Shown here: piece after piece, positions 13,252-31,239 of the stretch
Numbering within the stretch: the first letter of the stretch is position 1
Layout: every line of letters begins with the position of its first letter
NCBI RefSeq assembly: GCF_030824455.1
Contig: NZ_JAVBXR010000022.1
Coordinates: forward strand, 1 to 64,000
Reading direction: 5' to 3'
From: Desulfobulbus sp.
Lineage (GTDB): Bacteria > Desulfobacterota > Desulfobulbia > Desulfobulbales > Desulfobulbaceae
Length of the DNA: 64,000 bases
Notes under the pieces: model-generated
The model's input: only the letters and a program-made list of their open reading frames with translations
What the model was told of the DNA's origin: nothing
Databases searched by the model: none
Position numbers and translations under genes: made by a program

Positions 13252-13324
<73 letters not shown>

Positions 13325-13396: not shown

Positions 13397-13438
13397 TTGT
13401 CCGCTCACTTCCATGGTGATACGCTAAAATCCATGAAA

Positions 13439-13493: not shown

Positions 13494-13510
13494 AGATGGA
13501 GATTACCGTA

Positions 13511-14873: not shown

Positions 14874-14907
14874 TTCTCTCAGAGGATCATTTGAAAAAGA
14901 GGATAAA

Positions 14908-15865: not shown

Positions 15866-16075
15866 ATGAACCCCACCGAATCCCTGTTACGACTCCCCGA
15901 AGTAGAGGCCATTGTCGGCCTGAAGAAAAGCAAGGTCTACACCCTAATCCAAGAAGGCGGATTCCCTAAGCCGGTAAAGCTGGGTACCCGCTCGGTTCGC
16001 TGGAAGGCAAGCGATGTCTACTCCTGGATTAATAGCTTACCCGTTGCCGCCCTCACCGAGGAGGCCGCCGCATGA
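15866..16075 (+). CDS. alpA: AlpA-family regulator
   Basis: A 69-residue AlpA/MerR-like DNA-binding protein. It shows the typical LLRLPEVEAIVGLKKSKVYTLI helix-turn-helix, followed by the wing FPKPVKLGTRSVRWKASDVYSWI. In P4-like satellites and related islands AlpA/Vis proteins control excision and the element promoters. It starts the left operon; its stop overlaps the ATG of the next gene (ATGA). Confidence 0.92.
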   Translation: MNPTESLLRLPEVEAIVGLKKSKVYTLIQEGGFPKPVKLGTRSVRWKASDVYSWINSLPVAALTEEAAA

Positions 16076-16656
16076 ACACCGCCGCCATCTACCCCTTGGA
16101 ACAATATCGTGATTTTGCCAAAGAGACCCAATACATCTGCAACTTGACCAATCTAGCAAGAACCGTTGTGGGCATGCGGTGCCCAGTAACGAACAGGCTC
16201 CGTAGAGCGGTTAACGTTGCAACTGAACACCTGACCGCCCTGAACGATTTTTGGATTGAAGCTGTATCGATTGAGCATCCATCCGAATTGGCAGCTTTCG
16301 TTTTCTTTGTTGACGGTTTGCCTTTCGCCACAACGACAGAGCCAACGCCGGCATGCGTCGCAGAAGATATCCCCCGGCGGGTAAGGGCCATAGCCACTAA
16401 TCCGGGCGATGCCGCATCGTTTTCAAAAAGCGAAATAGTCGCGATCTCTGAACTATTTCTCGGTGTCCATTCTTGGCTACGCGAGCCCGGCCGAATCATC
16501 GCTAATCGCGTTCACCGAGAAAACCGGGTTGACGCTTTGACAATCATGGCCACTTGCCTGGCTGCTTTTCGTCGGGTTGCCGAAGCGGCAATGGCCGAGA
16601 TGGAACCGATCCACCAAGGCGTTGCACCGACGTCATCCCTTGCCATTGAAAACTGA
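16072..16656 (+). CDS. Unknown element protein (194 aa)
   Basis: No recognised domain. It is a soluble, mostly helical protein. Its start codon overlaps the alpA stop by four bases, so it is translated together with AlpA. The following gene starts 12 bases downstream after a GAGGAGG ribosome site. Position between alpA and the primase suggests an element regulatory or replication accessory role; this is inference only. Confidence 0.75.
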   Translation: MNTAAIYPLEQYRDFAKETQYICNLTNLARTVVGMRCPVTNRLRRAVNVATEHLTALNDFWIEAVSIEHPSELAAFVFFVDGLPFATTTEPTPACVAEDIPRRVRAIATNPGDAASFSKSEIVAISELFLGVHSWLREPGRIIANRVHRENRVDALTIMATCLAAFRRVAEAAMAEMEPIHQGVAPTSSLAIEN

Positions 16657-16667
16657 GGAGGCGACAA

Positions 16668-17600
16668 GTGAACAAGGGCCATCTCTCAGCCGCCGACATC
16701 AAGGCAACCCACAAACAGGTTGCGACTATACTCACAGCCACCCTTTCCGATTTGGCCGAAGTGGCCCGCCGATTACGCGTCATCGGCGGCGAATTGCCTC
16801 AGGACACCCTTGCCGCCGCAGGCGCGTTGACAGATGCGGCAATTGGCCTGCACGTGGCACTCGAAGCCCATGTAAAGGATCGTTATCCTGGGGAAGACTG
16901 GGTCAAGGTATACGATATCCAGCTGCTTGATTTCCAGGAGATTGAACCACTTGAGGGGGGGGGCGCAATGATGACACCGCCGCCGCCCACTTCCTTCATG
17001 TCGCCTGACGAACATGCCGCCATCGGTTGCGCTCTCTTCATCGCCCGCAACCAACTTATCGCCCCCATCGGGCCTGCAATTTTTGCGATACGGCCAGCGA
17101 AACTGAAAAAGCAGGTCCTGCGCCGACGCGAGGCGCTGATCCATGCCCTTGAAGATCTCCGGGCCTTCCTGGAAGAAGGCCCGGCCCGCCGTGCTGTGGG
17201 GCCTTGCCGTGCATTCGATCTATACTACCGGCCGGTGGTGGCTGAGGAAGATTTGAAAACATTACGCTGTCCAGGCGGAGGGCACCTTGCGGAGGTGTTG
17301 CGCCAGGGCATCAAAGAAAAGATATGTGGCGGTGGTCGCTTCACTGTCGGCGACTCTATCGCTATCTCCTCATTTGTCGAAACCGCGATAATCGGCAAAC
17401 TTGAAATCCCCCTGATGCTGCTCGCCGCCAGAATGACAAACCGAAACAAAAAGGAAAAGTTTCTGTCTCTTTGCGCTGCGTTGACCGCCAGCCGCACGGC
17501 GTTCACCTTGCTGCTCATAACGACCATTCTGCCCGACCTATCTGGCGACGACTACAGGGCGGTAGCTCTAACCCCTTTCAGGAGAGGTGGGTGTGCATAA
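16668..17600 (+). CDS. Unknown element protein (310 aa), possibly two genes fused at a poly-G run
   Basis: A GTG start behind a strong GAGGAGG. No recognised domain. The reading frame crosses a run of nine G (16955-16963) at about residue 97. Removing one G would end the first part with a TGA that overlaps the following ATG, giving two proteins of about 100 and 209 residues with the same four-base overlap used by other genes in this element. The second part would begin MMTPPPPTSFMSPDEH, with the G-run acting as its ribosome site. As it stands it is one continuous frame, and it overlaps the start of the primase gene. Confidence 0.65.
   Translation: MNKGHLSAADIKATHKQVATILTATLSDLAEVARRLRVIGGELPQDTLAAAGALTDAAIGLHVALEAHVKDRYPGEDWVKVYDIQLLDFQEIEPLEGGGAMMTPPPPTSFMSPDEHAAIGCALFIARNQLIAPIGPAIFAIRPAKLKKQVLRRREALIHALEDLRAFLEEGPARRAVGPCRAFDLYYRPVVAEEDLKTLRCPGGGHLAEVLRQGIKEKICGGGRFTVGDSIAISSFVETAIIGKLEIPLMLLAARMTNRNKKEKFLSLCAALTASRTAFTLLLITTILPDLSGDDYRAVALTPFRRGGCA
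16955..16963 (+). repeat. G9 homopolymer inside a coding frame
   Basis: Nine consecutive G at a point where a one-base change converts a fused 310-residue frame into two overlapping genes. It could be a phase-variable tract, a slippage site or a sequencing/assembly error. Confidence 0.8.
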
Positions 17601-20286
17601 GCGTTTTGATACATCGGTTCTGAATCTGGAATTATCCGACCTCCGCCGCGCAGCAATTGAAAATAACTGTGTAACCCCAAGCACAAAGACCAAGGGTGAT
17701 TTCCTGATAAACCTCCGCTGCCCATTATGTGGACAGCATAAAGCGAGCTGCCACGCGGCAAACCCAGGGCGATTGTACTGCTGGAGCGGCTCATGCACTG
17801 CATCAAAAGGCAATGGCGGCGTGGGTGTTGATGAATTGTTCGGGATCAGTATTGATTTTGAAAAAAGTTGCCCACCAAACGCAGTCGATGAAAATGCACC
17901 GGTGACCGCTTATCTCACGCAACAACGTGGACTCTCTCAAGATATAATCAGCGGCCTAGACTGTTTCTATTGTCCCTCAATCCGGGGGAGCGGAAAAGGC
18001 GGTGTCCTGCTGCGCGTCGGGGTCGACTCCAAAGGGAAGAGCGTGCTCAACGGTAGATTTTTCGTAAACCCACCAGATGGCAAAAAAGGGCACACAGAAG
18101 GTCACATCGGGGAGTTCATTCATGTCGGCAAAGAAGTGGATTTCAGCGCCGAGGTTGTGGTTGTCGAGGGCTGGATTTCCGAGATGTCTTTCTGGGACAT
18201 TGGGGTCCAAAGCGTTGCCGTATTCTCCTCGGTTGCCAGCCCTGAATCAAGACGAGACTTTTTTGAGCAATGCGAACGCCTAACGCTCTGTTTTGACAAC
18301 GACCGAAGCGGCGCCGGCCAAGAGGCAATGCGTCGATGGTTGCGCGCCTACCCGAAGGCTACGCCGATACTCCTGCCGCAAGGAGTTGATGCCAACAACC
18401 TGCTTGTTCGATATGGCAAAGAGAAAGGAGCAGAGGTATTCCGCAAAAACAGGCCGCAATATGAGTTCACCGCCCAACTCGCCTTAACCGAGTCTCCGCA
18501 GGCTTACGCCGAGCTGTGGTTGTCCTTCCATGGCGCAGCTCCTGGTCTATTCCAGTTCAAAAACGCGACCCATTTTAGCCAGCAAAAAGTCCCGCGAGGA
18601 TCGAACCAGGCCCCATATCTGGAGGTAACAAAAATTCTCCAGGGCGCCATTGAGGTTGTCGCTTTTCATCGAGACCAAACAACCGATGACACGCAGTATC
18701 ACTTGAAATTTACCCCTGAGAACCGGCAACGGAAACCTATCACCGCGACCGCCAGCGGAAGCAACCTGAGCAAGGCCGCAAACCTCAACGAGTGGCTGTT
18801 GAGCAAGATGGTCACTTTCTTCTCAGGCGATCACAACGCAGCCAGGGCCATTCAAGATAGGATCGTCAACGCAAAAGCTCCGCTTATCACGATCCTACCA
18901 GTGCTTGGTTATCAGCAAAATATCGATAGTTACGTTTTCGCATCATGGGGCGTCGACCCTTCAGGAAAAGCGATGGTTCCTGACCAGTATGGACATTTCC
19001 CAGCGGCGCCTGGATCCACTGGCCAGTTTGTCAAACCGCCGGCTCACGCAGAGCAGAAGAATATAAATCCCATCGACATCGACCATAAGCAAGCGAGAGA
19101 AATTCTGGCCTTAATCGGCAAAGGTTGGGGACCGCGAGGGCTCCTTTCCATCGGGTGGTTTGTCGGATCCCTGTTCGTCTCGCAGATAAAGGACCATTTG
19201 AATTTTTACCCCCACATGAGTTTTGCAGGCGATCCGGCTGCGGGCAAATCGAGCTTGCTGGTTTTGCTCCAATGCCTGCAAGGGCGATCTGGGGAGGGAA
19301 TACCCGTCGGCTCGCTCAACAGCAAAAAAGGTCTGGCGAGATCAATTGGAGGCGTAAGCAATCTCTTTTCGGCGATGATCGAGGACAACTCCAGGGATAG
19401 CAGGAATTTTGACTACGGTCTCATTTTATCTGGATACAACACCTCAAGCCTCAGCGTCAACGCGGCCTTTTCCAACGATCAACGTGTGCGAGAGACTCCA
19501 TTTTTAGGGACGTTGCTCTTCTCAAGCAACATCGAACCCTTCCAGGGCCGCGCAGAGAAGATGCGGATAATATCGCTCTTTTTTCGTAATGAGGATTTGA
19601 CCTCAGAAACCCGCTTGGCATACGACCGCTTGATGCAAATCGACAAGCATATTGTCGCCGGATTTATCAAGGCGATCCTGACCAACCGGAAATTTTTCGA
19701 ATCCCAATGGAAAGAGGAATACGAGGCCACCAAGAACAACATGGCGGCAAGTATAGCTGAGCACCGCATCCTTTGTAATCACGCAATTTGCTATGCTTTT
19801 TACGTCCTCACCTGCCGTTGTTTTGAGATGCAAGCAGCCCAAGAAGTCCAATCGTTCGCAATAGAAATAGGTCGGAAAAAATGTATCTCGTCGGCACTGC
19901 GTACCGCTGAAGCCAGCGACCATTTTTTTGAGATGCTCAATCACATCCAGGTGCCCAAGGATGAAAATGACCTGAAAGACGAGAATGGACGCGACAAGCA
20001 CACCTCCGCTTATTTTGCCGATGAGAAGCGCGGTCTCTTACTTATCAACCTCACCTCGTGCGAGCGTGCATTAAGAGACCGTAGTTTCAACATCCAAATT
20101 AACAATTCTCTCCTGGAGTCACTCCAGCACCATCCCGCCTACATCGGGAATTCAATTCGATTCCGATTCCCTTGGGACCGTGACCGCGACGCCTCAGGGC
20201 GACCAAAGCAACGCCGCGTATGGGCGTTTAACCTCGGATGGTTCCAGGAAAACGCACGGGACGTCATGGACATCATCAATCAATGA
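17587..20286 (+). CDS. Primase-helicase of the left replication module
   Basis: An 899-residue replication protein. Near the N-terminus is a zinc-ribbon with two Cys pairs (CPLCG, then a YCWSGSC stretch), as in DNA primases. A TOPRIM-like region follows (EVVVVEGWISEMSF, later LCFDNDRSGAG). The C-terminal half holds a P-loop (FAGDPAAGKSSLLVLLQ) and later helicase-like motifs (IEDNSRD, LLFSSNIEPF). The organisation is like the P4 alpha protein: primase plus helicase that start replication at a nearby iteron origin. The start is a GTG at 17587, with a second GTG at 17593 better spaced from GGAG; it overlaps the previous gene. It ends 30 bases before the first iteron. Confidence 0.88.
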   Translation: MGVHKRFDTSVLNLELSDLRRAAIENNCVTPSTKTKGDFLINLRCPLCGQHKASCHAANPGRLYCWSGSCTASKGNGGVGVDELFGISIDFEKSCPPNAVDENAPVTAYLTQQRGLSQDIISGLDCFYCPSIRGSGKGGVLLRVGVDSKGKSVLNGRFFVNPPDGKKGHTEGHIGEFIHVGKEVDFSAEVVVVEGWISEMSFWDIGVQSVAVFSSVASPESRRDFFEQCERLTLCFDNDRSGAGQEAMRRWLRAYPKATPILLPQGVDANNLLVRYGKEKGAEVFRKNRPQYEFTAQLALTESPQAYAELWLSFHGAAPGLFQFKNATHFSQQKVPRGSNQAPYLEVTKILQGAIEVVAFHRDQTTDDTQYHLKFTPENRQRKPITATASGSNLSKAANLNEWLLSKMVTFFSGDHNAARAIQDRIVNAKAPLITILPVLGYQQNIDSYVFASWGVDPSGKAMVPDQYGHFPAAPGSTGQFVKPPAHAEQKNINPIDIDHKQAREILALIGKGWGPRGLLSIGWFVGSLFVSQIKDHLNFYPHMSFAGDPAAGKSSLLVLLQCLQGRSGEGIPVGSLNSKKGLARSIGGVSNLFSAMIEDNSRDSRNFDYGLILSGYNTSSLSVNAAFSNDQRVRETPFLGTLLFSSNIEPFQGRAEKMRIISLFFRNEDLTSETRLAYDRLMQIDKHIVAGFIKAILTNRKFFESQWKEEYEATKNNMAASIAEHRILCNHAICYAFYVLTCRCFEMQAAQEVQSFAIEIGRKKCISSALRTAEASDHFFEMLNHIQVPKDENDLKDENGRDKHTSAYFADEKRGLLLINLTSCERALRDRSFNIQINNSLLESLQHHPAYIGNSIRFRFPWDRDRDASGRPKQRRVWAFNLGWFQENARDVMDIINQ

Positions 20287-20317: not shown

Positions 20318-20639
20318 GGTGACAGGTGGTGACACTGTGGTGACACCTCAAACATAACATAACTATATGAAATTATTATATTGTGACAGTGGTGACAGTG
20401 GTGACACCGTTTTTCAAGGGTTAGATATTGAAAACACGAAAAGGGCTGTACACGCCACACGTGAGAAAAAAATAGTGTCACCACTGTCACCATCAACCTT
20501 ATATTTATAAATAATATAATAATATTAATATATTATATAAATTTCAGTGGTGACAACAGGGGTTAAAATGGTGACAACAAGCCTTAATTTGGTGACAACA
20601 AGCCTTAATTTGGTGACAGCAAGCCCTTGTTTGGTGACA
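20318..20639 (+). other. Iteron replication origin of the left module
   Basis: Exact GGTGACA copies start at 20318, 20328, 20339, 20391, 20400, 20549, 20570, 20591, 20612 and 20633. Inverted TGTCACC copies are at 20476 and 20485, and a one-mismatch copy is at 20382. The last five direct copies are exactly 21 bases apart, two helical turns. Between the two groups is an extremely AT-rich stretch (about 20496-20545), suited to strand opening. The primase-helicase gene ends just upstream. Iterons plus AT tract plus initiator gene is the classic plasmid/satellite origin layout. Confidence 0.8.
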
Positions 20640-20644
20640 GCAGA

Positions 20645-21442
20645 ATGGGATTTTTAGACGACATTGACGAAAGCAGCGGCCGGAGTGACACTGTCCAGCA
20701 TCCTGGCCCCGCCGCCGACGAGCAGCTGGTCAGCCCCAGACCACAGGCCCAACTCCTGCCGCAACGGCCCGCCGGCGGCGACACGGCAGTGAAGGAATTG
20801 GCTGCAGATCATGTTGAAAAATCGGAACAGACGGCCACTGAGAGCGGCCCGGATATCTGGCGTCCCTCGCCGGCAGCGCTCGAGGAACGCCGGCGGATTC
20901 TGAACCGCAAACCGGAGCGCCTTTCTTTCCTGGCTCCCTGCCCGGTCTGCCACGGTCGGGCCTTCCTGAACATCGACGGCGGGGGTTTTGTCTGCCTGAC
21001 CTGCACGCCCGGCCTTTTCGGCTATCCGGTGGAAGCGGCCGGCCCGGATCGGCCGCCGGTAGAGGATAAAGATATCGACTTGCGTCTGGCCAGCGACCAC
21101 CACGACACAGCAGCCGCGCCGCAGCCTGTGGGATGCGAACCAACAGAGGATCAGCGGGCGCACTTCGCGGCCGCCTGGCCCTGGGTCAAAGAGAACAAAG
21201 CCGCATTGTTGGCGGCGGGGTGGACCATGGCCGCCCTGGTGCGTCGCGCGAAATTCCGTTGGCCTTACGGCCCCTGGGGAGTGGCTTGGTTGCCGGTGTG
21301 GAGCAAGCCGGGGGTTGTTGTGACTATCGGTAGGCGCGGTGCAATCAGCTTCACATTTCCATCGTCGGCGCGGACGATCACGCAGATATCGCAGCCGCCG
21401 CAGCGCAGCAAAAAACACTCAACCAAGGAGGCAAGGAAGTGA
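20645..21442 (+). CDS. Unknown zinc-ribbon protein (265 aa)
   Basis: An unrecognised protein with a central zinc-ribbon-like motif, CPVCHGRAFL followed by FVCLTC (two CxxC knuckles). The N-terminal third is low-complexity and Pro/Gln/Ala-rich; the C-terminal end is basic. The start is the ATG at 20645; the longer TTG reading crosses the last iteron. That iteron ends five bases before the ATG and no ribosome site is visible, so an initiator bound there would probably also affect this gene. The stop overlaps the next gene's GTG (GTGA). Confidence 0.65.
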   Translation: MGFLDDIDESSGRSDTVQHPGPAADEQLVSPRPQAQLLPQRPAGGDTAVKELAADHVEKSEQTATESGPDIWRPSPAALEERRRILNRKPERLSFLAPCPVCHGRAFLNIDGGGFVCLTCTPGLFGYPVEAAGPDRPPVEDKDIDLRLASDHHDTAAAPQPVGCEPTEDQRAHFAAAWPWVKENKAALLAAGWTMAALVRRAKFRWPYGPWGVAWLPVWSKPGVVVTIGRRGAISFTFPSSARTITQISQPPQRSKKHSTKEARK

Positions 21443-22287
21443 TCACCCTGGACATCAAAGGCATCAAAGAATTGGACAAGCTTTTAAAATCAATGCCCGG
21501 AAAGGCGGACCGCGCGGCAAGGGCATCTTTGACAAAGACCGGCAAAGCCATCAAGGAAGAGGTGATTGCAGAGATGAAGCGCGTTTTTGATAAACCGACC
21601 CGCTTCACCCTCAACAGCCTTCAACTCGACCCTGCCACCAAAGGGAAGCCCGAGGCCAGAGTCTGGTTTAAGCAACCGGCCCGGATGCAACAGCACTACC
21701 TTGTCCCACAGGTTGAGGGCGGCGGGCGAAAGCTCAAGGGTTTTGAGCGAGGTGTCGGCATGGGGCGGCTCATCCCTGGACAATTCGCCCGCATGACACC
21801 TGAGGGGAACGTCTCCCCTGGTCAGCTCCGGCAAATCATGTCCGTCCTGGGAAAAGCGGAGACATCAGCTGGCTTCTCCGCGAACCTCACCGCACGTTCG
21901 GCGCGGCGGAACATGAGCGCCCGCGATTACGTGATCATTCGCCGGCGGAACGGCCGCCTGCTGCCCGGTATCCACCAACGATTTCAAACCAAGGCCGGTT
22001 TTGGGGCAAAGACCAAGCGGACCATTGCCAGGTTCGGGACCTGGCAAAAAGGCAACCGCAAGGTGGCTGTGCGCGACCCCAAGACTGGCAGGATTCTCCG
22101 ATGGGTCTCCCCGGCATCCCGGATTCAATCGATTGTCCGCGCCAAGGGCCTGCGGCCCGTCATGTTGCAGGGGAAAAATGGTCCGATTAAACCATTGCTG
22201 CCTTTCTACGATATTGCCCGACGGGTGTTCAACGAGAAGTTCATCCCCACGTTCCACGCCACCTTCGAAACATTCCTCAAATCATGA
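21439..22287 (+). CDS. Phage minor tail / tail-completion protein (gpZ- or gp10-like)
   Basis: A 282-residue basic protein starting ITLDIKGIKELDKLLKSMPGK, then an Ala/Lys-rich helix (RAARASLTKTGKAIKEEV). This is the opening typical of lambda gpZ and HK97 gp10-type tail-completion proteins, which join head and tail. The rest is Arg/Lys-rich with a C-terminal YDIARRVFNEKFIPTFHATFE helix. The identification is by pattern, not by motif residues. It begins at a GTG overlapping the previous stop, with an AAGGAGG ribosome site. It is the first gene of the tail block. Confidence 0.6.
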   Translation: MITLDIKGIKELDKLLKSMPGKADRAARASLTKTGKAIKEEVIAEMKRVFDKPTRFTLNSLQLDPATKGKPEARVWFKQPARMQQHYLVPQVEGGGRKLKGFERGVGMGRLIPGQFARMTPEGNVSPGQLRQIMSVLGKAETSAGFSANLTARSARRNMSARDYVIIRRRNGRLLPGIHQRFQTKAGFGAKTKRTIARFGTWQKGNRKVAVRDPKTGRILRWVSPASRIQSIVRAKGLRPVMLQGKNGPIKPLLPFYDIARRVFNEKFIPTFHATFETFLKS

Positions 22288-22457
22288 GCGTAGAACCAGT
22301 GAAAATAAACGGCGCGGCAAAAAACAACGCATTCTGCACAAGCAAATCAAGGTGCAGCACTTTTGTTTCACCACCACATGCTGTGTTTATGTTCCGTTTT
22401 TCCGACCAAAATAACATATTCCCCGTGCGCGTTGGTCGGGGTGCGAAATACCCGTGA

Positions 22458-22499
22458 GTGGGCAAACCGTCAGAGGGACCCGCGCCGCCCACCTTTTTT
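22458..22499. other. Hairpin segment in the 22288-22556 gap
   Basis: GTGGGC (22458-22463) pairs with GCCCAC (22487-22492) around a 23-base loop and is followed by C plus six T. On the plus strand it could end the upstream tail gene transcript. On the minus strand the same stretch reads ...GGAGPSDGLPTHG..., similar to a GAGLPTH peptide encoded by the hairpin at 26801-26876, so it may be a second copy of that structured element in opposite orientation. The rest of the gap (about 270 bases) shows no gene. Confidence 0.45.
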
Positions 22500-22609
22500 C
22501 TTTCCGCCAGCCCTGAACAGGTCGACCTGAGGGGGGCGGGGTTAACAGGAAAAGGCATGACGAACGCTTTATTGGATCAGTTTACCAGCAAAGGTCAAGA
22601 GGATCAGAC

Positions 22610-22999
22610 ATGAGCAAGAAGAACACGCACACCGCATTGAGCGAGGGCAAGGGCAAGCAACCCCGGTTCAACGCGGCTATCACCGAGGAAGAACTCAAAC
22701 TGGCGCTTGCCGGTTGTGAGACGTGGGACAGCGCCCGGCCTGTCGTCTTGGATCTCCTGGCCAAGAAGAGCGGCGAACTCTTTCAGATATACCAAGGGGA
22801 CGCGGATGCAGCCGGAAAGGAGTGGATTGACACCATGAACCTTTTGACCAAATACCGCGCCCATCTCTTTCAATGCCTTCACATGTGCTCTTGTGCAATG
22901 GAGCGGATGGCCATCATAGGGGAGCACCTCGCTCAGGGCATGGAGCAAGTGGAGCAACCTAAACCCGTCGTCCGCATTCACCGGGAAACAATGCATTGA
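22610..22999 (+). CDS. Unknown protein in the tail block (129 aa)
   Basis: No recognised domain. A soluble helical protein, with a Cys/Met-rich stretch near residues 90-97 (CLHMCSCAM). A GAGG ribosome site precedes the ATG. An 18-codon ORF beginning at 22557 ends in the overlapping ATGA, so translation may be coupled. Its place between the gpZ-like gene and the chaperone-like gene suggests a tail-related or satellite-specific role; that is inference. Confidence 0.65.
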   Translation: MSKKNTHTALSEGKGKQPRFNAAITEEELKLALAGCETWDSARPVVLDLLAKKSGELFQIYQGDADAAGKEWIDTMNLLTKYRAHLFQCLHMCSCAMERMAIIGEHLAQGMEQVEQPKPVVRIHRETMH

Positions 23000-23107
23000 A
23001 GCAATCACACCGGGCGGAGCAGTCGCCGACCGGCACACCAACACCTGCCAGGCAAGGACGCCGGGCGGGAACACCAACCAGGGCAACAAGCCCAGAGGCA
23101 CACAATC

Positions 23108-23455
23108 ATGCAAGACAGCGTCACAACCACATTCCAAGACCAATCCATCACCGTGAAAGAGTTGACCGTGAAGCAGGTGCGGGAACTTTTCGAACGCCTC
23201 AAGAACGAACCGTCACTCTTCATTGACGATCTGATTGACCAACCGGTCCCTGCTTTGGCGATCAGCGAATCCACGGGAATCTCGCTTGAACAGCTCGACG
23301 CCGCTAAGCCATCGGAGGTGGTGGCCCTATGTGGCGAGGTGGTGAAAGTAAACCCTTCCTTGGCCTCGATGATAAGCCGACGCATCGAGGCTGCCGAACG
23401 GCTGGAGCAGGCCATTCTTTCCGCAAAGAGCTTGACCGCGCCATCTGTATCATGA
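23108..23455 (+). CDS. Tail-assembly-chaperone-like protein
   Basis: A 115-residue protein with the pattern ITVKELTVKQVRELFERL..., later ISLEQLDAAKPSEVVALCGEVVKVNPSLASM. This matches my recollection of Mu-type tail assembly chaperones (gp41-like), which sit directly upstream of the tape measure gene. The stop overlaps the ATG of a short ORF in the -1 frame (ATGA), the position where chaperone genes of many tailed phages make a second product. No canonical X-XXY-YYZ slippery heptamer is visible. Pattern and position support the call; it is not proven. Confidence 0.6.
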   Translation: MQDSVTTTFQDQSITVKELTVKQVRELFERLKNEPSLFIDDLIDQPVPALAISESTGISLEQLDAAKPSEVVALCGEVVKVNPSLASMISRRIEAAERLEQAILSAKSLTAPSVS

Positions 23456-23538
23456 TTGCCGTCGGCCACACCAGGGTCTGGGAATATGGATTTTCGTTTT
23501 TTCTCACAGCTCTGAAAGAGACACCCGTACGAGGTTAA
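23452..23538 (+). CDS. 28-residue ORF coupled between chaperone and tape measure genes
   Basis: The ATG at 23452 overlaps the TGA of the chaperone-like gene and the ORF stops four bases before the tape measure ATG. The peptide starts MIAVGHTRVWEYGFSFFLTA and has the feel of a real structural fragment. The same frame is open upstream, so a -1 frameshift could instead attach it to the chaperone. It is short and unverified. Confidence 0.5.
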   Translation: MIAVGHTRVWEYGFSFFLTALKETPVRG

Positions 23539-23542
23539 CCAC

Positions 23543-25978
23543 ATGGCCACACAATCTAAAATTGAAGCCATTCTTTCCCTGAAAGACACCAACATGTCAT
23601 CGGGAATCGGCAAGGCGACCAAAGGACTCCAGGGATTGCAAAAGGAGGCTGAAACCCTGAAGGTCAAGCTATCTGGCCTATCGGCAATGAAGTTGGCCAT
23701 TGGCGGATTAGCTGCCGGAGGGGCAGTCGCTGGCGCCGCTTACTACGCCAATGAGGTGAGGAAGATAGCGGATGAATACACCAACCTCAACTCTCGCTTG
23801 AAGCTGGTCACCGACGGCGAGCAGGATCTGACCATGGTGCGCGAACGCCTTTATCAGATCAGCCAGGAGACCGGGACCGAGTATGCCGGCAACGCCGACA
23901 GCTACGCCAAGCTGTCCAGGGCGGTGAAAGACCTTGGAGGTACCAGCAGTGATACATTGCAGATTGTGGAGATGGTAAACAAGTCGTTGACTATCAATGG
24001 CTCCACAACCGCCATGTCATCGGCCTTTATGCTGCAGTTTGCCCAGGCGATGGGTAGCGGCGTACTGCAAGGAGATGAATTCCGCTCCATGCTGGAGAAC
24101 AACGGCTTCTTTGCCTCAGAACTCGCCAAGGCTCTCAACACCAATATTGCCGGCCTCCGCGACATGTCAAAAAATGGTGAGTTGACCGCCGACAAACTGC
24201 GAGCCGCCTTCCCGAAAATGTCCCAAGCCATCAACTCCGAATTCAGCAAGATTTCCCCGACAGTCGAACGGGCCATGATCGTGCTGGAAAACAGCTTCAA
24301 GCGCATCGTCGATGAATCGAACAGAGCCAGCGGCGGTACAGGATCCATATCTCAATCCATCATCAACCTTGCACAAACCATTGACCGCAACCGGGATGGA
24401 ATCATTTCCCTGTTCACAAAAATGATTGACCTGGGCGCATGGAGCACCAAGCAGGTGGCTGGCGTCGGTACAGAGCTTGAGGTTCTTGGCCAAGTGGCCA
24501 AGGGTAATCTTGGTTTCTTCGACTACATCAAAATGACCAGCGTTGAAGAAATGCATGAATGGTTGAAGAAAAACGTGCAGGTCCTCAACGAGACCGGCCC
24601 GGCGGCTCAAAAGGCTGGAGCCGAAATATCCAATTCAGCCAAGCGGGCTGGCGCCGCCCAAAAACAGGCGACCGGTGAAGCCCTCAAGGAGATGAAGAAG
24701 CAGTACCAGGACTACGCCAAAGAGATTCGCCAGCTGCAGGATGATATCTCTGGGCGTGAAAAATCACTCGCCGCCGAACTTCGCGATATGGCCCGATCCG
24801 GCATGTCCGACTATTCCGCGTGGCAGGATCAGAAAAAAGAGGCTCAGGAGTACGAAACGGCCGCCAAAAAGGCAGCAAAAGAGGCGGCAGCGGCCATGAA
24901 CGCGGGGGACAACATCACCGCCGGGGCGAAATGGAAGGAAGCGGTTGGTTACGCCGATCAGGCCAAGCAATCGTACAGTCACCTCAACCAGGAGGTGACA
25001 AACGGCGACACTGTCTTGATATCCAAGCAACAAGCCTTAAAAACCGCCATGGACGGGGTTAAATCCGCTGGCGAACTCTCAATTTCCATCGTCAAACAGC
25101 AGCAGGCCGCCACCGCTGGGGCTATGAATTCGCTGACCGAGCAATCCGGATATGCCAACTTAGCCGACGGCATGACCAAGGCCGAGCAACAGTGGCTTGC
25201 CAGTTGGGAGAACATGAAGAACGCCGCCGGCGAGAAGATCAACCTGGTGAAGCAGCAAATCGATTCCATGGGCGCCAATGCCGAGCAGGTGAAAGAGAAG
25301 ATGAAGGCCGCCTTTGCCGACGTCTTTCAGCCACCGGAAGACGGCGACTGGGGGAAGGTGTGGGAGGCCATGGAATCGGGGTCAAAATCGTCGGCGGGAA
25401 CCGTGACCAGCGATTGGGAAAAGGTTTGGGACCAGTTCCTTGCCTCTGGAAGTGAAGACATTGCAACGCTGGAAAAGCAACTCACCGAACTCACCAAAGA
25501 CAGGCATGTGAAGGTTTACGTGGAATCTGTTCAGCAAAACCGCTGGGGCGGGCTGATCGGCGCTTATCAGACCGGCGGCCAGGTTTCACGTTTTGCCCGT
25601 GGCGGCAAGCTGCCAGGATACGGCGGCGGCGACCGGGTGCGGGCGCTGCTGGAGCCGGGCGAATTTGTGGTCCGGAAGGAAGCGGTGGCGCGGTATGGCG
25701 TGGGCTATTTGCAAGCGCTCAACTCCATGCGGCTCAACGACATCAGCACGGTCAAGGCCAGGATCGGCGGCTTGATTGCCGGGGCCAACAGTGCTGCATA
25801 TCAGCGGTTCCAACAAGGCGGTCTGGCAACCGCCAAGGCTCCGGCTGAAACGGTCAACCTTAACCTGACCCTGCCGGGAAGCACTCAGGCCCACCCGATG
25901 GTGATCGGAAAGGAACATATCCCGCAGCTTCTCAGGGCTGTCGACGCTTACAACAGACGGCGAAGCAGCAACAGATAA
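23543..25978 (+). CDS. Phage tail tape measure protein
   Basis: An 811-residue protein. An N-terminal helical region leads into a Gly/Ala-rich hydrophobic stretch (LAIGGLAAGGAVAGAAYYA), then the tape-measure domain (SRLKLVTDGEQDL, KLSRAVKDLGGTSSDTL, MLQFAQAMGSGVLQGDEFRSM, NNGFFASELAKALN). Then come long helical coiled coils rich in Lys, Glu and Ala, and a C-terminal GGKLPGYGGGDRVRALLEPGEFV segment typical of these proteins. Tape measure proteins set tail length and are ejected with DNA. At about 0.15 nm per residue it would give a tail of about 120 nm if all of it counts; this is an estimate. No tail tube, sheath or baseplate gene is nearby. Confidence 0.92.
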   Translation: MATQSKIEAILSLKDTNMSSGIGKATKGLQGLQKEAETLKVKLSGLSAMKLAIGGLAAGGAVAGAAYYANEVRKIADEYTNLNSRLKLVTDGEQDLTMVRERLYQISQETGTEYAGNADSYAKLSRAVKDLGGTSSDTLQIVEMVNKSLTINGSTTAMSSAFMLQFAQAMGSGVLQGDEFRSMLENNGFFASELAKALNTNIAGLRDMSKNGELTADKLRAAFPKMSQAINSEFSKISPTVERAMIVLENSFKRIVDESNRASGGTGSISQSIINLAQTIDRNRDGIISLFTKMIDLGAWSTKQVAGVGTELEVLGQVAKGNLGFFDYIKMTSVEEMHEWLKKNVQVLNETGPAAQKAGAEISNSAKRAGAAQKQATGEALKEMKKQYQDYAKEIRQLQDDISGREKSLAAELRDMARSGMSDYSAWQDQKKEAQEYETAAKKAAKEAAAAMNAGDNITAGAKWKEAVGYADQAKQSYSHLNQEVTNGDTVLISKQQALKTAMDGVKSAGELSISIVKQQQAATAGAMNSLTEQSGYANLADGMTKAEQQWLASWENMKNAAGEKINLVKQQIDSMGANAEQVKEKMKAAFADVFQPPEDGDWGKVWEAMESGSKSSAGTVTSDWEKVWDQFLASGSEDIATLEKQLTELTKDRHVKVYVESVQQNRWGGLIGAYQTGGQVSRFARGGKLPGYGGGDRVRALLEPGEFVVRKEAVARYGVGYLQALNSMRLNDISTVKARIGGLIAGANSAAYQRFQQGGLATAKAPAETVNLNLTLPGSTQAHPMVIGKEHIPQLLRAVDAYNRRRSSNR

Positions 25979-26003
25979 TCTCCATTCAAAAAAAGAGGAT
26001 CAC

Positions 26004-26630
26004 ATGAACGATCAGGAAATAACCAAACAGGTTGACGAAGAAACCAGCTACATCCCACTCAAGGATCTTGAAACTTTGCCGGATGCAATTTTGGCGCAAC
26101 TCTACACAATGGGCGGCCAGCTGCCGGGGTATGGCGGGGGGGACAAGGTGCTTGTGCTCCTGGAGCCTGGCGAGTTCGTCATACGCAAGGAGTCCGCCGC
26201 CCACTATGGGGAATCCTTCCTGCATGCGCTCAACGATATGCGCCTTGATGCCAGCAGCATCAATACTGAGCATGCACACGCCGACGGTCCCGGTGAAACG
26301 GTGTTTTTCGATTTCAGGCCACCAGCAGGAATCCCTGCGGAACAGGCACGCGATCACCTGGAACAGATCGAAGACAACAACGAGGCCATCAGCGCAATCA
26401 CCATGGCCCTGAGCACCATCTCATTGTTGACGATGAAACCACGGTGCGAAACCTGTGGCCAGTGGCACGATATCCTTACCAACGGGAGAAATGTTGGTGG
26501 TCTGTACAGCGCCATCCATGCGCTCACAGACCATTCAAACCATCTCACTCATGAGGCCAGGCGCTGCCTTGTTGAACAGCGCAAAGAAGGGGAAACAGCG
26601 GGCGACGGGTCTCAACCAATCATTTCTTGA
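26004..26630 (+). CDS. Protein repeating the tape-measure C-terminal motif (208 aa)
   Basis: Residues about 38-82 (GGQLPGYGGGDKVLVLLEPG..., then EFVIRKESAAHYG, then LHALNDMRL) closely match the C-terminal segment of the preceding tape measure protein, including spacing. After this comes a helical part and a small CETCGQWH motif that may bind metal. It lies 25 bases after the tape measure gene with its own GAGG ribosome site. It may be a duplicated tape-measure tail piece or an accessory of the tail tip. Confidence 0.7.
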   Translation: MNDQEITKQVDEETSYIPLKDLETLPDAILAQLYTMGGQLPGYGGGDKVLVLLEPGEFVIRKESAAHYGESFLHALNDMRLDASSINTEHAHADGPGETVFFDFRPPAGIPAEQARDHLEQIEDNNEAISAITMALSTISLLTMKPRCETCGQWHDILTNGRNVGGLYSAIHALTDHSNHLTHEARRCLVEQRKEGETAGDGSQPIIS

Positions 26631-26644: not shown

Positions 26645-26747
26645 CCCGGCAAAGATAAGAACGCAAACGCAAAAAACGTTTGCCGGGTTTGGAAGCCCGA
26701 ACACCAGGCGGACGCACCGCCACAACTCCCAGTTCGGCGGTTTTTTT
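26645..26747 (+). terminator. Two hairpins ending the tail block
   Basis: CCCGGCAAA (26645-26653) pairs with TTTGCCGGG (26679-26687), a perfect 9-base stem with a 25-base loop. Then ACCGCC (26716-26721) pairs with GGCGGT (26736-26741) and runs into seven T (26741-26747), a good intrinsic terminator. They begin about 15 bases after the stop of the 208-residue gene. Confidence 0.65.
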
Positions 26748-26800
26748 GCGCCTTACGTTTGGGTGTAGTGCGTCAAATCATCATAGCTTGCTTTCTCTTT

Positions 26801-26876
26801 GGGGCGGCTATGTGGGAGGGGGAAACCCCTGCTGGTCCTGGTGCCGGTCTTCCAACCCACATAGTCCGCCCCTTTT
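26801..26876 (+). ncRNA. Strongly folded RNA element (ASH/immunity-region-like)
   Basis: Bases 26801-26816 pair with 26856-26872 with only one unpaired A, a 16-bp stem. The loop holds its own stem (AGGGG/CCCCT) and a GGT/GCC-rich part, and five T follow the outer stem. The plus frame across it encodes a WEGETPAGPGAGLPTH-like stretch which I associate, from memory, with the ASH/Icd-like regions of P4-type elements. In P4 the matching region gives a small immunity RNA. The fold is certain; the role is a guess. Confidence 0.5.
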
Positions 26877-26930: not shown

Positions 26931-27263
26931 ATGCAGCGCGCCACCACCACCCGCACCACCACAGCAAAAAAAGCAGTCACTTCCCCCAAAAAACAATCCC
27001 CACCTTTGGCCGATGATGGGCAGCACCACAACCCGCCCACCGATGCCGGGCCGCGTCTTCAACCGTTGCCACAAGCCCTGATAGTGGCCAACCAACTGCG
27101 CCGCATGGCCAAAGACCTGATCCTGCAGGCAGAAGCACTTGAGGCGTCGGTGCCTAGGCCACAGGCAGAGTGGGCGCCACGAAAGTATTCAATTCTTGGA
27201 GAAATAAAGTATCGCCCTGACAGCATTGACAAAATCATCCGGCAACAGCGAGGTGGGCAATGA
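26931..27263 (+). CDS. Unknown small protein (110 aa), first gene of the right operon
   Basis: Preceded by AGGAG. A Thr/Lys/Pro-rich N-terminus leads into a helix LPQALIVANQLRRMAKDLILQAEALEASV. That helix resembles the core of the 80-residue protein at 31535 (IVAAMLRGIGKQLIKLAERLEAEA), so the two are probably paralogues flanking the right replication module. The stop overlaps the next ATG. Function unknown. Confidence 0.65.
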   Translation: MQRATTTRTTTAKKAVTSPKKQSPPLADDGQHHNPPTDAGPRLQPLPQALIVANQLRRMAKDLILQAEALEASVPRPQAEWAPRKYSILGEIKYRPDSIDKIIRQQRGGQ

Positions 27264-27649
27264 TACCGTATTCAAAACACCCCCCCCACGCCACCGTTCA
27301 GGAAATAGGGTTTAGAAATGTTTTCGGAATGTTTATTTGGAGAAATAGTAATGACAACAACATGTCCTCCCGCCACCACCGCCACAACGGCAGCCACCCC
27401 CACGCCGCCCTTATGCCTCTTTTGCGGCATCTCCACAGCACCCTCGAAGTGCTTCGCGATTACGCCCTTCATCACTCCGGGGCAGATGACGACCCTATTT
27501 ACACCCGCATGGTTGACGTTATCGAATCTGTAGCCTCCATGGCGAACCGTTTCTGTGAACATGCCGGTGACCTAGAGTCAAAGCTGGTGGCAGATTTGAA
27601 GAAACTCAAAGCGATTGCCCAACGGGTTGACGGCAAGGTGCTGTCATGA
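27260..27649 (+). CDS. Unknown small protein (129 aa)
   Basis: The ATG at 27260 overlaps the previous stop (ATGA). The first 30 or so residues look irregular, while residues from about 52 onward form a good amphipathic helical protein (HLHSTLEVLRDYALHHSG... then VDVIESVASMANRFCEHA). An internal ATG at 27362 is an alternative start. It overlaps the next gene by four bases. No domain recognised. Confidence 0.6.
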   Translation: MIPYSKHPPHATVQEIGFRNVFGMFIWRNSNDNNMSSRHHRHNGSHPHAALMPLLRHLHSTLEVLRDYALHHSGADDDPIYTRMVDVIESVASMANRFCEHAGDLESKLVADLKKLKAIAQRVDGKVLS

Positions 27650-28338
27650 GCGCCACCGACCGCACCACCCCGGCCCTTGCTACAGCAGCAGCTAAACGCC
27701 GCCGCCAACAATTCGCACCCCAAACCGATGACGGGAGCCATCACGGTTTAACCAAAGCCAGCGACATTGCCGATGCCATAGCCATGGTGGACCGAGGCTT
27801 GGAACGTCTCCGCCGGCAGCGCGGTAAAAAGAACGCCGGCAAGAAAGGCAAGGCCAGGATTCCGCAATCGCAAGATATTTCTCTGACCCAAACGCTTGTA
27901 ATGGCTAAGGCACACTTGGAGGATTATCACCGCCAGGTCATGCAGCGGGCGACCGCCGACAGGAGTACGGCCGAGGGGACTTCATGCATTGACGCTGACA
28001 AAATCATGGACGGATTGAGCCCTGTTCACACACTAGCTGGGGAACAATTGCAAGAGCCTTACGAGCCCATCGACAAAGCCAAAGCCGTTGTTCGCATGCT
28101 CATGGGCTGCCAGGATGATGCAACCAGTGAATCCAGGCTTTACCCCAATGATGTTGCCTGGGGTCTGCTTCTCCTGTCTGACCTCCTGATTGAAGCAGGA
28201 AAACGGGCCGAGGGATACCAGGACCATTGCCATACCCTTTACGAGGAAATCAGCAAACGGATTGCGCCCTATTCTTTGGTAGGCCATGACTGCGGCGAGA
28301 CGCCCCATAGGGGAACGGCGCAGGAGGTGCAGCAATGA
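27646..28338 (+). CDS. Unknown protein (230 aa) with a repeated ~65-residue domain
   Basis: An Arg/Lys-rich N-terminal half precedes a C-terminal domain, EPYEPIDKAKAVVRMLMGCQ followed by a helix ending in YEEISKRI. The next gene carries a related domain (EPEEPLDKLNAVIHLISGCQ), so this is a tandem duplication. Start and stop overlap the neighbours by four bases each, indicating one tightly coupled operon. Function unknown. Confidence 0.68.
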   Translation: MSATDRTTPALATAAAKRRRQQFAPQTDDGSHHGLTKASDIADAIAMVDRGLERLRRQRGKKNAGKKGKARIPQSQDISLTQTLVMAKAHLEDYHRQVMQRATADRSTAEGTSCIDADKIMDGLSPVHTLAGEQLQEPYEPIDKAKAVVRMLMGCQDDATSESRLYPNDVAWGLLLLSDLLIEAGKRAEGYQDHCHTLYEEISKRIAPYSLVGHDCGETPHRGTAQEVQQ

Positions 28339-28730
28339 ACAGTCATACACCAGCAGCACATGCAGGCCAGGAACAACAAAGGGGGATCATCAGCACCAGC
28401 GAACTGTTATCCAACCTCCACCTGGGATTTGTGCACGGTGATCGCGAACCGGAAGAGCCCCTCGACAAACTGAATGCCGTCATTCACCTGATATCAGGTT
28501 GCCAGGATCCATCATCCGACAAGTTCATGATTAGCGAGGAACATATAGCGTGGGCGCTTTCGGTAGCGACGGATCTGATCAAGGAAATTCAGATGATAAT
28601 CAACGAGCATCGAGAACACCTCAGCACGACATGGGGGGAACTGGAACACCGCCTTAACACCTGCCACATACTTCCCCATGACCTCGCAAAATGGCCGCCC
28701 ATGAAAACGGGACAGGAGGGCCGGCCATGA
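28335..28730 (+). CDS. Unknown protein (131 aa), paralogue of the preceding gene's C-terminal domain
   Basis: Residues about 38-110 align with the C-terminal domain of the preceding protein: the same 'EP-DK--AV--L-GCQD' opening, an 'AW-L---TDLI-E' middle, and a helix ending 'EL-HRL'. It seems to be the domain alone with a short new N-terminus. Four-base overlaps occur at both ends. Function unknown. Confidence 0.68.
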   Translation: MNSHTPAAHAGQEQQRGIISTSELLSNLHLGFVHGDREPEEPLDKLNAVIHLISGCQDPSSDKFMISEEHIAWALSVATDLIKEIQMIINEHREHLSTTWGELEHRLNTCHILPHDLAKWPPMKTGQEGRP

Positions 28731-29053
28731 ACGCAATACAGCAGCCAGAAAAACCAACCGTGCTTTCCGCATCTGAACAAAGGGACGTTGAGGCGGCCGC
28801 AAACCGAATTCGAGAAATTGGAATATCTGTCGCCACGCTCGGAAAGATCATGTCCGCCATTCAACTGCAGCTCATCTTGGAAGAGGAACCAAGTGCGCCG
28901 TGCGGCGACTGCCAGATGCATGAAATCGTTAAGACACCCACCCTCTTTGCGCTGCAAACAGCCATCAAAGAGTTGGGTGGAATTGTCCATACCCTTGGCG
29001 ATAACATAGAGACCACCATTCATCACGCCCACCAGCGCAAGGGAAGCGCATGA
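28727..29053 (+). CDS. Unknown small protein (108 aa)
   Basis: Starts at the ATG at 28727, which overlaps the previous stop; the longer reading begins inside the previous gene. It is helical, with a CGDC motif in the middle (APCGDCQMHE) that may bind metal or form a disulfide. It overlaps the start of the second primase-helicase gene. Function unknown. Confidence 0.63.
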   Translation: MNAIQQPEKPTVLSASEQRDVEAAANRIREIGISVATLGKIMSAIQLQLILEEEPSAPCGDCQMHEIVKTPTLFALQTAIKELGGIVHTLGDNIETTIHHAHQRKGSA

Positions 29054-31239
29054 TGAATGCTATCGAAACGATAGGCCGCGCCCTGGGCGGCAAGCCAAAA
29101 CCGGGCGGCGGCTGGATGTGCCGTTGCCCGGCCCATGACGACAAGGAGCCCTCTTTGTCAATCGATCTGGGCGACAACCTGCGGCCGGTGCTGAAATGCT
29201 GGGCCGGATGCTCCAATCAGGATGTTATCAGCGCCTTGCGTGCCCGCGGACTCTGGCCCGAGCGTTTGCCGCTGACGGGGCGCGCTCAACCGGCACCAGA
29301 GAAACGAACCAAAGAGACAAGCAGCCAGCGGCGGCCGGATCGGGAGGCGGCCGCCGCCGAGGCTGTCCGACGGTGGGAAGCGGCCGGCCCGGCAAATCGT
29401 GACCACCCCTATCTTGCCGGCAAGGGCCTCGAAGGCCAAGGGCTCCGTCAGGAGGGCCGCCTGCTGCTGGTTCCAATGTGCGACACGGAGGGCGCGGTTT
29501 GCTCCCTCCAGACGATCAGCCAGCAAGGACAGAAGATGTTTTTGAAAGGCGGCGCCGTCTCTGGCCTGCTGTTCCTCCTTGGCGACCCGCCCGAACCAGA
29601 TTGGCCGATGTGCGTGGCTGAAGGCTGGGCCACCGGCGCGGCGATCCATGCCGCGACCGGCTACCCGGCGGCGGTGGCTTTTTCCGCCACAAATCTGACG
29701 CAGGTTGCCGGAATCATCCAAACGAAGCACCCCGGACACCAGATCATTGTCTGCGCCGACGATGACCTCAATCCGGATAAAGAGAACAACACGGGCATCG
29801 AGGCGGCCACTGCTGCCGCCATGTCTGCCGGCGGGTTACTGGCCATTCCTGGTATGGGCAAAAAAGCAGATTTTTGGGATCTGTGGCACGAACAAGGCCC
29901 TGACGCAGTACGGAAGGCGATTGCAGACGCCAAGCCGGTTGACGATGCAGCAGACTGCACAGACCATAATCCCGAACAAGAGGACCCGGCCGCCATGATT
30001 CGTTATCTGGCGGGGCTGTCAGCCCTCGAATACGAGCAGAAACGGCGCGCTGTTGCCGAGGCGTTGGGTGTTCGAGCCTCTGCCCTTGACCGGGCCGTCA
30101 AGGAGGCAGGAAAAAGCCAAAATGAAAGCATTCTGCCGTTTGATGAACCAGACCCGTGGCCAGAACCTGTTGAACCGAGCCAACTGTTGACCGACATTGC
30201 CGCCACCATCCAGCGGTTCATTATCTGTTCCACCGAGGTCGCCCACGCCGTGGCTCTTTGGTCCGCCATGACCTGGTTCATGGACGTGGTGCAGGTCGCC
30301 CCTCTGGCGATCATCACCGCCCCGGAAAAACGGTGCGGTAAGTCGCAGCTGCTGTTTCTGCTGGGGCGGCTTTCCGCCAGATCCATCACGGCAAGCAGCA
30401 TTTCCCCGGCGGCGCTGTACCGAGCCATCGACGCGTGGCAACCGACCTTGTTGATTGATGAAGCCGACGCCTTCCTGAAAGACAACGAGGAATTGCGCGG
30501 GATCATCAACAGCGGCCACACCCGGGATTCAGCGTATGTCATCCGTACCGTTGGCGACAACTTCACCCCCACCAAGTTCAACACCTGGGGCGCAAAGGCT
30601 ATTGCCGGAATCGGCCATGTTGCCGACACCATCATGGACCGATCAGTTATCCTGGAGCTTCGGCGCAAACTGCCCCATGAAGAGGTGGCCCGGCTCCGCT
30701 ACGCCGAGGCTGATCTCTTCGGCAACCTGCGGGCAAAGCTCGCCCGGTTCGCCGACGATTACGCCGCCATGGTCCGGCAAACCCGCCCGCCTCTTCCATC
30801 GTGCCTGAACGACCGGGCTCAGGACAACTGGGAACCCCTGCTGGCAATCGCCATGGTTGCCGGCGGCCATTGGCTGGAGATCGGAACCAGGGCCGCCATC
30901 AAACTGTCCGGCTGCGAGAGCGCGGCGCAAACCATCGGCGGTGAACTGCTGGCCGACATCAAGGAAATCTTTGAGATGAGGGATATAGACAGGATCAGCA
31001 CGGCTGATCTGATTAGGGCGTTGTGCGATGATGATGAAAAGGCCTGGGCGACCTACAACCGGGGAAATCCCATCTCGCCACGACAGCTGGCCAACAAGCT
31101 GAAAGGGTACGGCATTGCCAGCAATACGCTTCGCTTCCGGCATGCAGGCCTCGCCAAGGGGTATGAAAGAGAGCAATTCGAGGAGGCGTTTTCTCGGTAC
31201 ATACCGCCTCAACCTCCAGTTCTATCCGTAACAGCGTAA
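29050..31239 (+). CDS. DUF3631 primase-helicase of the right replication module
   Basis: A 729-residue protein unrelated in sequence to the primase at 17587. It has an N-terminal zinc finger (MCRCPAHDDKEPSL... LKCWAGCS), a TOPRIM-like part (MCVAEGWATGAAIHAA, later IIVCADDDLNPD), a P-loop-like ITAPEKRCGKSQLLFLLG, a Walker B LLIDEADAF, and the DUF3631 signature (DRSVILELRRKLPHEE, LNDRAQDNWEPLLAIA). Such proteins combine priming with helicase-type ATPase activity in plasmids and satellites. It is the last gene of a chain with four-base overlaps from 26931. Its stop lies inside the first repeats of the CGTAAC cluster. Confidence 0.88.
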   Translation: MMNAIETIGRALGGKPKPGGGWMCRCPAHDDKEPSLSIDLGDNLRPVLKCWAGCSNQDVISALRARGLWPERLPLTGRAQPAPEKRTKETSSQRRPDREAAAAEAVRRWEAAGPANRDHPYLAGKGLEGQGLRQEGRLLLVPMCDTEGAVCSLQTISQQGQKMFLKGGAVSGLLFLLGDPPEPDWPMCVAEGWATGAAIHAATGYPAAVAFSATNLTQVAGIIQTKHPGHQIIVCADDDLNPDKENNTGIEAATAAAMSAGGLLAIPGMGKKADFWDLWHEQGPDAVRKAIADAKPVDDAADCTDHNPEQEDPAAMIRYLAGLSALEYEQKRRAVAEALGVRASALDRAVKEAGKSQNESILPFDEPDPWPEPVEPSQLLTDIAATIQRFIICSTEVAHAVALWSAMTWFMDVVQVAPLAIITAPEKRCGKSQLLFLLGRLSARSITASSISPAALYRAIDAWQPTLLIDEADAFLKDNEELRGIINSGHTRDSAYVIRTVGDNFTPTKFNTWGAKAIAGIGHVADTIMDRSVILELRRKLPHEEVARLRYAEADLFGNLRAKLARFADDYAAMVRQTRPPLPSCLNDRAQDNWEPLLAIAMVAGGHWLEIGTRAAIKLSGCESAAQTIGGELLADIKEIFEMRDIDRISTADLIRALCDDDEKAWATYNRGNPISPRQLANKLKGYGIASNTLRFRHAGLAKGYEREQFEEAFSRYIPPQPPVLSVTA

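What the first reader, a model, noticed from the sequence alone, without database searches (positions are those of the whole stretch)
20645..26630. Satellite-like element carrying a tail-morphogenesis block without head genes
The element has satellite hallmarks (integrase, AlpA, primase-helicase, iteron origin), and also a gpZ/gp10-like protein, a chaperone-like protein, an 811-residue tape measure and a companion protein. No terminase, portal, capsid, tail tube, baseplate or lysis gene is visible within the inferred ends. Known capsid-forming satellites encode heads and borrow tails; this looks like the reverse. One idea is that it redirects the tail length or tail completion of a helper phage so that only satellite genomes are packaged or delivered. 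Function is inference.
Basis: partly seen in the sequence, partly recalled or inferred. Interest (0 to 1): 0.85.

Follow-up and report, generated by a model that had tools for sequence, protein, structure and literature searches.

The report
Phage satellite carrying spare tail-ruler genes
A parasite-of-a-phage in Desulfobulbus bacteria carries its own copies of the helper's tail ruler, tail chaperone and a tail-neck protein but no head genes, so it most likely builds hybrid tails from its own and its helper's parts, as was recently shown for an unrelated cholera satellite.

Summary
A ~21.7 kb integrated element (13,325 to ~35,030) at the tRNA-Ala 3' end in a Desulfobulbus genome carries integrase, AlpA, two primases, an iteron origin, P4-type regulatory RNAs (int-alpA RNA, C4, isrK) and a tail block: gpZ-like neck protein, tail assembly chaperone (TAC) and full-length tape measure protein (TMP). 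No head, terminase, tail-tube, tip or lysis gene was found. The core order primase1–g271–(gpZ)–TAC–TMP recurs in six other elements of the order (some are contig fragments), under strong purifying selection (TMP dN/dS ~0.1) and exchanging independently of the replication module. A dead-prophage origin is therefore unlikely. Related TMP and TAC genes sit in siphoprophages of the same genus. The best mechanism is chimeric tails: satellite TMP/TAC (plus a neck protein in one subtype) replace the helper's on otherwise helper-built tails. This was shown in 2026 for Vibrio cholerae PLEs (PMC12987554), so this is a new variant of a known kind. TMP lengths give no support for systematic tail shortening.

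The parts
13252..13325 (+). tRNA-Ala(GGC); its 3' end is the attachment site (left end of the element)
   Evidence: ARAGORN; tRNA plus upstream gene found together in most genomes of the genus; sequence after the tRNA matches island-bearing relatives, not most others
13394..14779 (+). tyrosine integrase (Arm-DNA-bind_3, Phage_int_M, Phage_integrase)
13439..13460 (+). arm-type repeat, left copy
14808..14885 (+). int-alpA RNA (RF02996, 37.1 bits, over gathering 35.8)
14908..15735 (+). 275-aa protein, unknown; homologue (31%) in sister island G001b
15866..16075 (+). AlpA-type regulator/excisionase (PF05930, over cut-off)
16072..17600 (+). two unknown ORFs (194 aa; 310 aa, the latter conserved in G004)
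17587..20286 (+). primase/helicase 1 (phrog_1139, Toprim_2); marker of this satellite family
20318..20640 (+). iteron region (TGGTGACA repeats); candidate replication origin; also in G004
20627..21442 (+). g271, Zn-ribbon-like protein conserved in the satellite family; start probably the ATG at 20645
21439..22287 (+). gpZ/HK97-gp10-like neck or tail-completion protein
   Evidence: phrog_1924 5e-38, phrog_27 1e-7; homologues just upstream of TerS or between portal and TMP in phages
22610..22999 (+). 129-aa protein, unknown; also in G004 (40%)
23108..23455 (+). tail assembly chaperone (TAC)
   Evidence: family profile recovers genes directly upstream of TMPs in phages; AlphaFold model pLDDT 76, weak hits to the PLE1 TAC 5IR0, YqbN 3KLU and HK97 TAC 2OB9
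23543..25978 (+). tape measure protein, full length, 811 aa
   Evidence: PF20155, TIGR02675, PHROGs; dN/dS ~0.1
26004..26630 (+). companion: TMP C-terminal motif duplicate fused to a satellite-specific 115-aa domain
26663..26747 (+). isrK-like RNA (RF01394, 46.1 bits, gathering 50)
26797..26876 (+). C4 antisense RNA (RF01695, 45.2 bits, gathering 45)
26931..29053 (+). operon of small unknown ORFs (110, 129, 230, 131, 120 aa); the 230- and 131-aa ones conserved in the family and related to each other
29050..31239 (+). primase/helicase 2 (Toprim + DUF3631)
32599..33741 (-). Fic-family protein (PADLOC SoFic 7e-63), probable defence cargo
34930..34951 (+). arm-type repeat, right copy
35016..35028 (+). 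near-copy of the tRNA 3' end (GCTTAGC-CCACCA); probable right attachment site
   Evidence: inference

Best explanation
The element is an integrated phage satellite with P4-like regulation. On helper induction it is derepressed through its C4/isrK RNA switch, excises (integrase, AlpA) and replicates (iterons, primases); these steps are inferred from known families. It is packaged in a helper siphophage's head, since it makes none. It also expresses its own TAC and TMP, and in this subtype a gpZ-like neck protein. The satellite TMP, kept soluble by its own chaperone, starts on the helper's tail-tip complex through its C-terminal half, which is shared with resident phages. The helper's tail-tube protein polymerises around it, giving a chimeric tail with satellite TMP inside, completed at the neck by the satellite gpZ. 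The benefit is inferred: satellite particles do not depend on the helper's TMP, can escape anti-TMP defences or sabotage, and may control DNA ejection. Shown here: gene content, recurrence, selection, mosaicism and relation to phage tail genes. Not shown: mobilisation, helper identity, or incorporation into virions.
For: 1) The core order prim1-g271-(gpZ)-TAC-TMP recurs in G004 (D. rhabdoformis), G001 (single-contig genome), the IMG/VR contig of L029/L051, G043 and G108; L040 (= G179:C81) carries g271-TAC-TMP. 2) TMP, TAC and primase1 are under purifying selection (TMP dN/dS 0.09-0.17; TAC 0.09-0.21). 3) The tail block travels separately from replication: window vs G001 is 39% in primase1 but 72-74% in TMP; window vs G004 is 74-76% in both. 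4) TMPs have two N-terminal types (about 20% identity between them) on one shared middle/C-terminal part; gpZ was found only with type A (window, G004, G001). The type-A N-terminus is 66-73% identical to phages V28 and G020, and the middle is up to 64% identical to phage G015. 5) Those phages have portal and capsid or protease genes, with terminase shown for V28 and G020. 6) The TAC family lies between tail-tube gene and TMP, or directly upstream of TMP, in phages. 7) The isrK/C4 RNAs are present in sister elements and in a resident phage contig with portal, tail tube, TAC and TMP. 8) PLE TMP+TAC cassettes were shown to build chimeric tails and to be needed for efficient transduction (PMC12987554).
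Against: No experiment. The own genome's candidate helper is only a 16.8-kb prophage fragment (contig C36, gpZ 52% identical, GpA-type TerL at the contig end). No second TMP of this type was found in the assembly, and the single-contig genome G001 has no phrog_15 TerL. No shared packaging (cos/pac) site with a phage was found. The gpZ model has no solved-structure match. Some relatives with the same primase lack the tail block, so the block is not essential to the family.
Confidence: 0.68

Rival explanations
1. Interference: the satellite's TMP, TAC and gpZ mainly poison helper tail assembly (dominant-negative decoys), protecting the host population rather than forming satellite virions.
For: Tail assembly is a known target of satellite-borne defence (Tai, PMC11364771; Rta, PMC12987554). 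The companion at 26004-26630 fuses a TMP C-terminal mimic to a satellite-only domain. A Fic-family defence-like gene is nearby.
Against: All seven satellite TMPs are full length (811-918 aa) with intact N- and C-terminal parts, and the three tested are under strong purifying selection. A decoy would not need the whole ruler plus its chaperone.
Confidence: 0.14
2. Host-range or injection module: the satellite TMP is carried mainly to change DNA ejection into different hosts, with tail assembly otherwise unchanged.
For: Two interchangeable TMP N-terminal types exist. TMP takes part in genome injection in HK97 (Cumby et al. 2015, cited in PMC11364771).
Against: It still requires incorporation into a chimeric tail, so it is a variant of the best explanation. 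No host-range data.
Confidence: 0.1
3. Deletion remnant of a prophage that kept a fragment of its tail module next to unrelated island genes.
For: TMP and TAC clearly derive from siphophage tail modules. Tail tube and tip genes that adjoin TMP in phages are missing.
Against: Same core in six other elements, low dN/dS, no pseudogenes in the window's block, gpZ brought in from a different late-operon position, flanking primase1/g271 not seen in head-encoding phages.
Confidence: 0.04

Closest known systems
PLE satellites of Vibrio cholerae (PLE1, PLE4, PLE11), tac-tmp(-bhuB) cassettes and chimeric tails (PMC12987554)
   Same: Satellite with TMP and TAC but borrowed capsid and tail tube. The best PDB hit of our TAC model is the PLE1 TAC 5IR0, at a weak E-value.
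   Different: Sulfate-reducer host. Related phages look like siphophages, whereas ICP1 has a contractile tail. A gpZ-like neck protein here, no baseplate hub match. P4-type regulatory RNAs and two primases.
P4-like satellites (PMC8628076)
   Same: tRNA integration, integrase, AlpA, primase-helicase behind a C4-type RNA, int-alpA RNA.
   Different: No Psu, Sid or Delta match. Two primases. A tail block and no capsid-sizing gene found.
Capsid-forming PICIs (cf-PICIs)
   Same: Satellite that encodes part of a virion. Some are reported to carry putative tmp genes (PMC12987554, Extended Data Fig. 10).
   Different: cf-PICIs encode heads; none was found here.
Tail-interference defences (Tai PMC11364771; Rta PMC12987554)
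   Same: Satellite-borne genes acting on tail assembly.
   Different: Those are dedicated inhibitors; this is a full-length ruler plus chaperone.

Membership tests
PLE-type chimeric-tail satellite (works like) | Encodes TMP and TAC, no capsid genes | tested here: met
   the TAC assignment rests on genomic position and weak fold similarity
PLE-type chimeric-tail satellite (works like) | Satellite TMP incorporated into satellite virions and needed for transfer | not testable with these tools
   needs induction, mass spectrometry and a tmp deletion
PLE family (is a member of) | Vibrio host and PLE-specific gene content | tested here: inconclusive
   host group is Desulfobulbus/Desulfobulbales, not Vibrio; a direct comparison with PLE genomes was not made, so membership is not claimed
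P4-like satellites | integrase, AlpA, primase-helicase | tested here: met
   (Toprim primase-helicases; homology to P4 alpha itself not tested)
P4-like satellites | C4/CI-type immunity RNA upstream of the primase operon | tested here: met
   (C4 45.2 bits, gathering 45); sister elements G001 and G108 above gathering
P4-like satellites | psu, sid and delta (core per PMC8628076) | tested here: not met
   no matches in Pfam or PHROGs; so not filed as a P4-like member
cf-PICI | own capsid, portal and terminase genes | tested here: not met
Complete or decayed prophage | head/packaging genes, or the same order inside complete prophages | tested here: not met
   one family relative (G179:C112) does carry a terminase large subunit

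The most novel reading that the evidence does not exclude
A two-ended tail takeover: gpZ at the neck and the matching TMP N-terminal type form a specificity pair, so that satellite tails join only satellite-filled heads, while the TMP-mimic fusion at 26004-26630 jams the helper's own TMP. The satellite would thus both replace and block the helper's tail pathway, using parts swapped among satellites and phages.
Probability: 0.15. Interest if true: 0.9.

Novelty: new variant of a known kind. Interest (0 to 1): 0.7.

Why it matters
Until 2026 no satellite was reported to encode a TMP. PLEs were called the first family known to build chimeric tails, and putative tmp genes elsewhere were only listed (PMC12987554). 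This is a distinct, recurring lineage in a different bacterial group, with related phages that look like siphophages, its own TAC and a neck protein. It would support tail replacement as a general satellite strategy. The co-occurrence of gpZ with one TMP N-terminal type is a concrete, testable hint about how tail and head are matched.

Tried and rejected
Prophage remnant: rejected on recurrence, selection and modularity. Systematic tail shortening: TMP lengths overlap between satellites and phages. ORF 26627-26905 as a gene: rejected. gpZ fold comparison: model pLDDT 71, no PDB match with Foldseek, VIA Z at most 5.3 to unrelated proteins, inconclusive. TAC fold comparison: only weak E-values, used as support, not proof. 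Search of the annotated phage collection for the TAC gave nothing. Shared cos/pac site with the candidate helper: no non-coding match. Close gpZ relatives in viral contigs by single sequence: none; by alignment: 32. Scan for the TAC in named genomes gave only three loci. A link between the 115-aa companion domain and the phage gene after TMP (alignments) was not evident by eye and was not tested by profile comparison. The C4 DNA alignment was badly framed and was not used.

Full report
Host and boundaries. The window lies in a genome of the genus that contains Desulfobulbus rhabdoformis DSM 8777, whose contig carries a sister element. The element starts right after tRNA-Ala(GGC): the tRNA and the gene before it occur together in most genomes of the genus. 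Relatives L155, L162, L163 and L167 share the sequence that follows the tRNA in the window, with a related integrase start in L155 and L167, whereas most other relatives have a different terminator there. The right end is inferred at ~35,030 from a repeat of the arm-type sequence (34,930; 0.01 expected by chance) and a near-copy of the tRNA end at 35,016-35,028. The length is thus ~21.7 kb.

Content. PHROGs, Pfam, NCBIfam and PADLOC scans identify integrase, AlpA, two Toprim primase-helicases, a gpZ-like neck protein, a tape measure protein (TMP) and a Fic protein. No head, packaging, tube, tip or lysis gene was found. Rfam adds an int-alpA RNA (over threshold), a C4 antisense RNA (at threshold) and an isrK-like RNA just under threshold. 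In G108 both C4 and isrK are over threshold. The region folds far better than shuffled sequence (z -4.9) and is the best-conserved non-coding DNA of the family. C4 RNAs control P1/P7/P4 immunity (own knowledge), and IsrK controls a lytic antiterminator in Gifsy-1 (PMC4825925), so a helper-responsive switch is a reasonable inference.

Recurrence. tblastn and ORF comparison found the core in G004, G001, the IMG/VR contig of L029/L051, G043 and G108, and g271-TAC-TMP in L040, which is identical to G179:C81. Members differ: gpZ was not found in the IMG/VR element, G043, G108 or L040; primase2 was matched in the window, G004, G001 and, with a broken reading frame, the IMG/VR element. The primase1 family is wider: other loci (second G001 island, G164, G160, G192, G028, G204, G201, G079) carry other cargo behind primase1, and in one (G179:C112) a terminase large subunit precedes primase1. 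The slot behind the origin is thus variable, and the tail block is one of its occupants.

Selection and mosaicism. dN/dS is 0.09-0.17 for TMP and 0.09-0.21 for TAC; for gpZ synonymous sites are saturated, with pN/pS 0.32-0.39. Synonymous sites are near saturation in several other pairs too, so these ratios are approximate. TMP is 72-74% identical between window and G001 while primase1 is 39%. TMPs divide into two N-terminal types with ~20% identity to each other, on a shared middle/C-terminal part that is also present in phages V28, G020, G015 and G046. Trees of the two halves mix satellites and phages rather than giving one satellite clade, though several branches are weak. gpZ accompanies only type A; this rests on three gpZ-bearing and four gpZ-lacking elements, so it is suggestive only.

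Are these really tail genes? TMP: yes, by curated models. TAC: the family lies between tail tube and TMP in G146 and G023 and directly upstream of TMP in others; the AlphaFold model (pLDDT 76) has the PLE1 TAC 5IR0, YqbN and HK97 TAC 2OB9 among its top PDB hits, all at weak E-values, and PMC12987554 identifies 5IR0 as the PLE1 TAC. gpZ: PHROG matches to minor tail and Neck1 families; in phages the gene is either just upstream of TerS or between portal and TMP (L138) or upstream of TMP (L128). Fold evidence for gpZ is inconclusive.

Helper. The own genome has a prophage fragment (contig C36) with gpZ 52% identical and GpA-type TerL at the contig end, but no second TMP of this type. Siphophages with related TMPs exist in other species of the genus. 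A phage contig in G023 carries isrK-C4, portal, tail tube, TAC and TMP together. A helper is therefore plausible but not identified.

Mechanism and prior work. PLEs encode TMP, TAC and sometimes a baseplate hub. Their TMP replaces the phage's in virions, tail length changes with TMP length, and tmp deletion cuts transduction by 96-99.9% (PMC12987554). That is the same logic at the level of gene content, so I file this as working like PLE tail takeover but not as a PLE, and not as a P4-like member because Psu, Sid and Delta were not found. Since TMP lengths overlap between satellites and phages, a length change is not the likely purpose; independence from the helper TMP, or neck and ejection specificity, is more likely (inference).

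Noticed in passing
window 26640-26915: About 320 bp of highly conserved non-coding DNA holding an isrK + C4 RNA tandem, shared by several satellites and by a resident phage contig (G023:C9); possible shared satellite/helper induction switch.
   Followed up: partly
L097 (G179:C112) 3074-4897, minus strand: A relative with the same primase1 family carries a terminase large subunit (phrog_15); the tail block of the same genome is on a separate short contig (C81 = L040), so one element may hold both.
   Followed up: partly
L092 (G001:C1:3235000-3254999): Second related island in the same chromosome with C4/isrK, int-alpA RNA and primase1 but no tail block.
   Followed up: partly
L105 (IMG/VR record G096): A Mu-like prophage (portal, capsid, 1199-aa TMP distantly related to satellite TMPs) lies next to a tail-block satellite on the same contig.
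   Followed up: partly
window 32599-33741: Fic-family protein (SoFic model) at the right end; related proteins also occur on the integrase side of sister elements.
   Followed up: no
window 17587-20286 and 29050-31239: Two different Toprim primase-helicases in one satellite, one beside iterons and one behind the C4 RNA; why two are kept is unexplained.
   Followed up: no
L107 (G000:C36): Prophage fragment in the same genome with a gpZ homologue (52%) and TerL at the contig end; candidate helper.
   Followed up: partly
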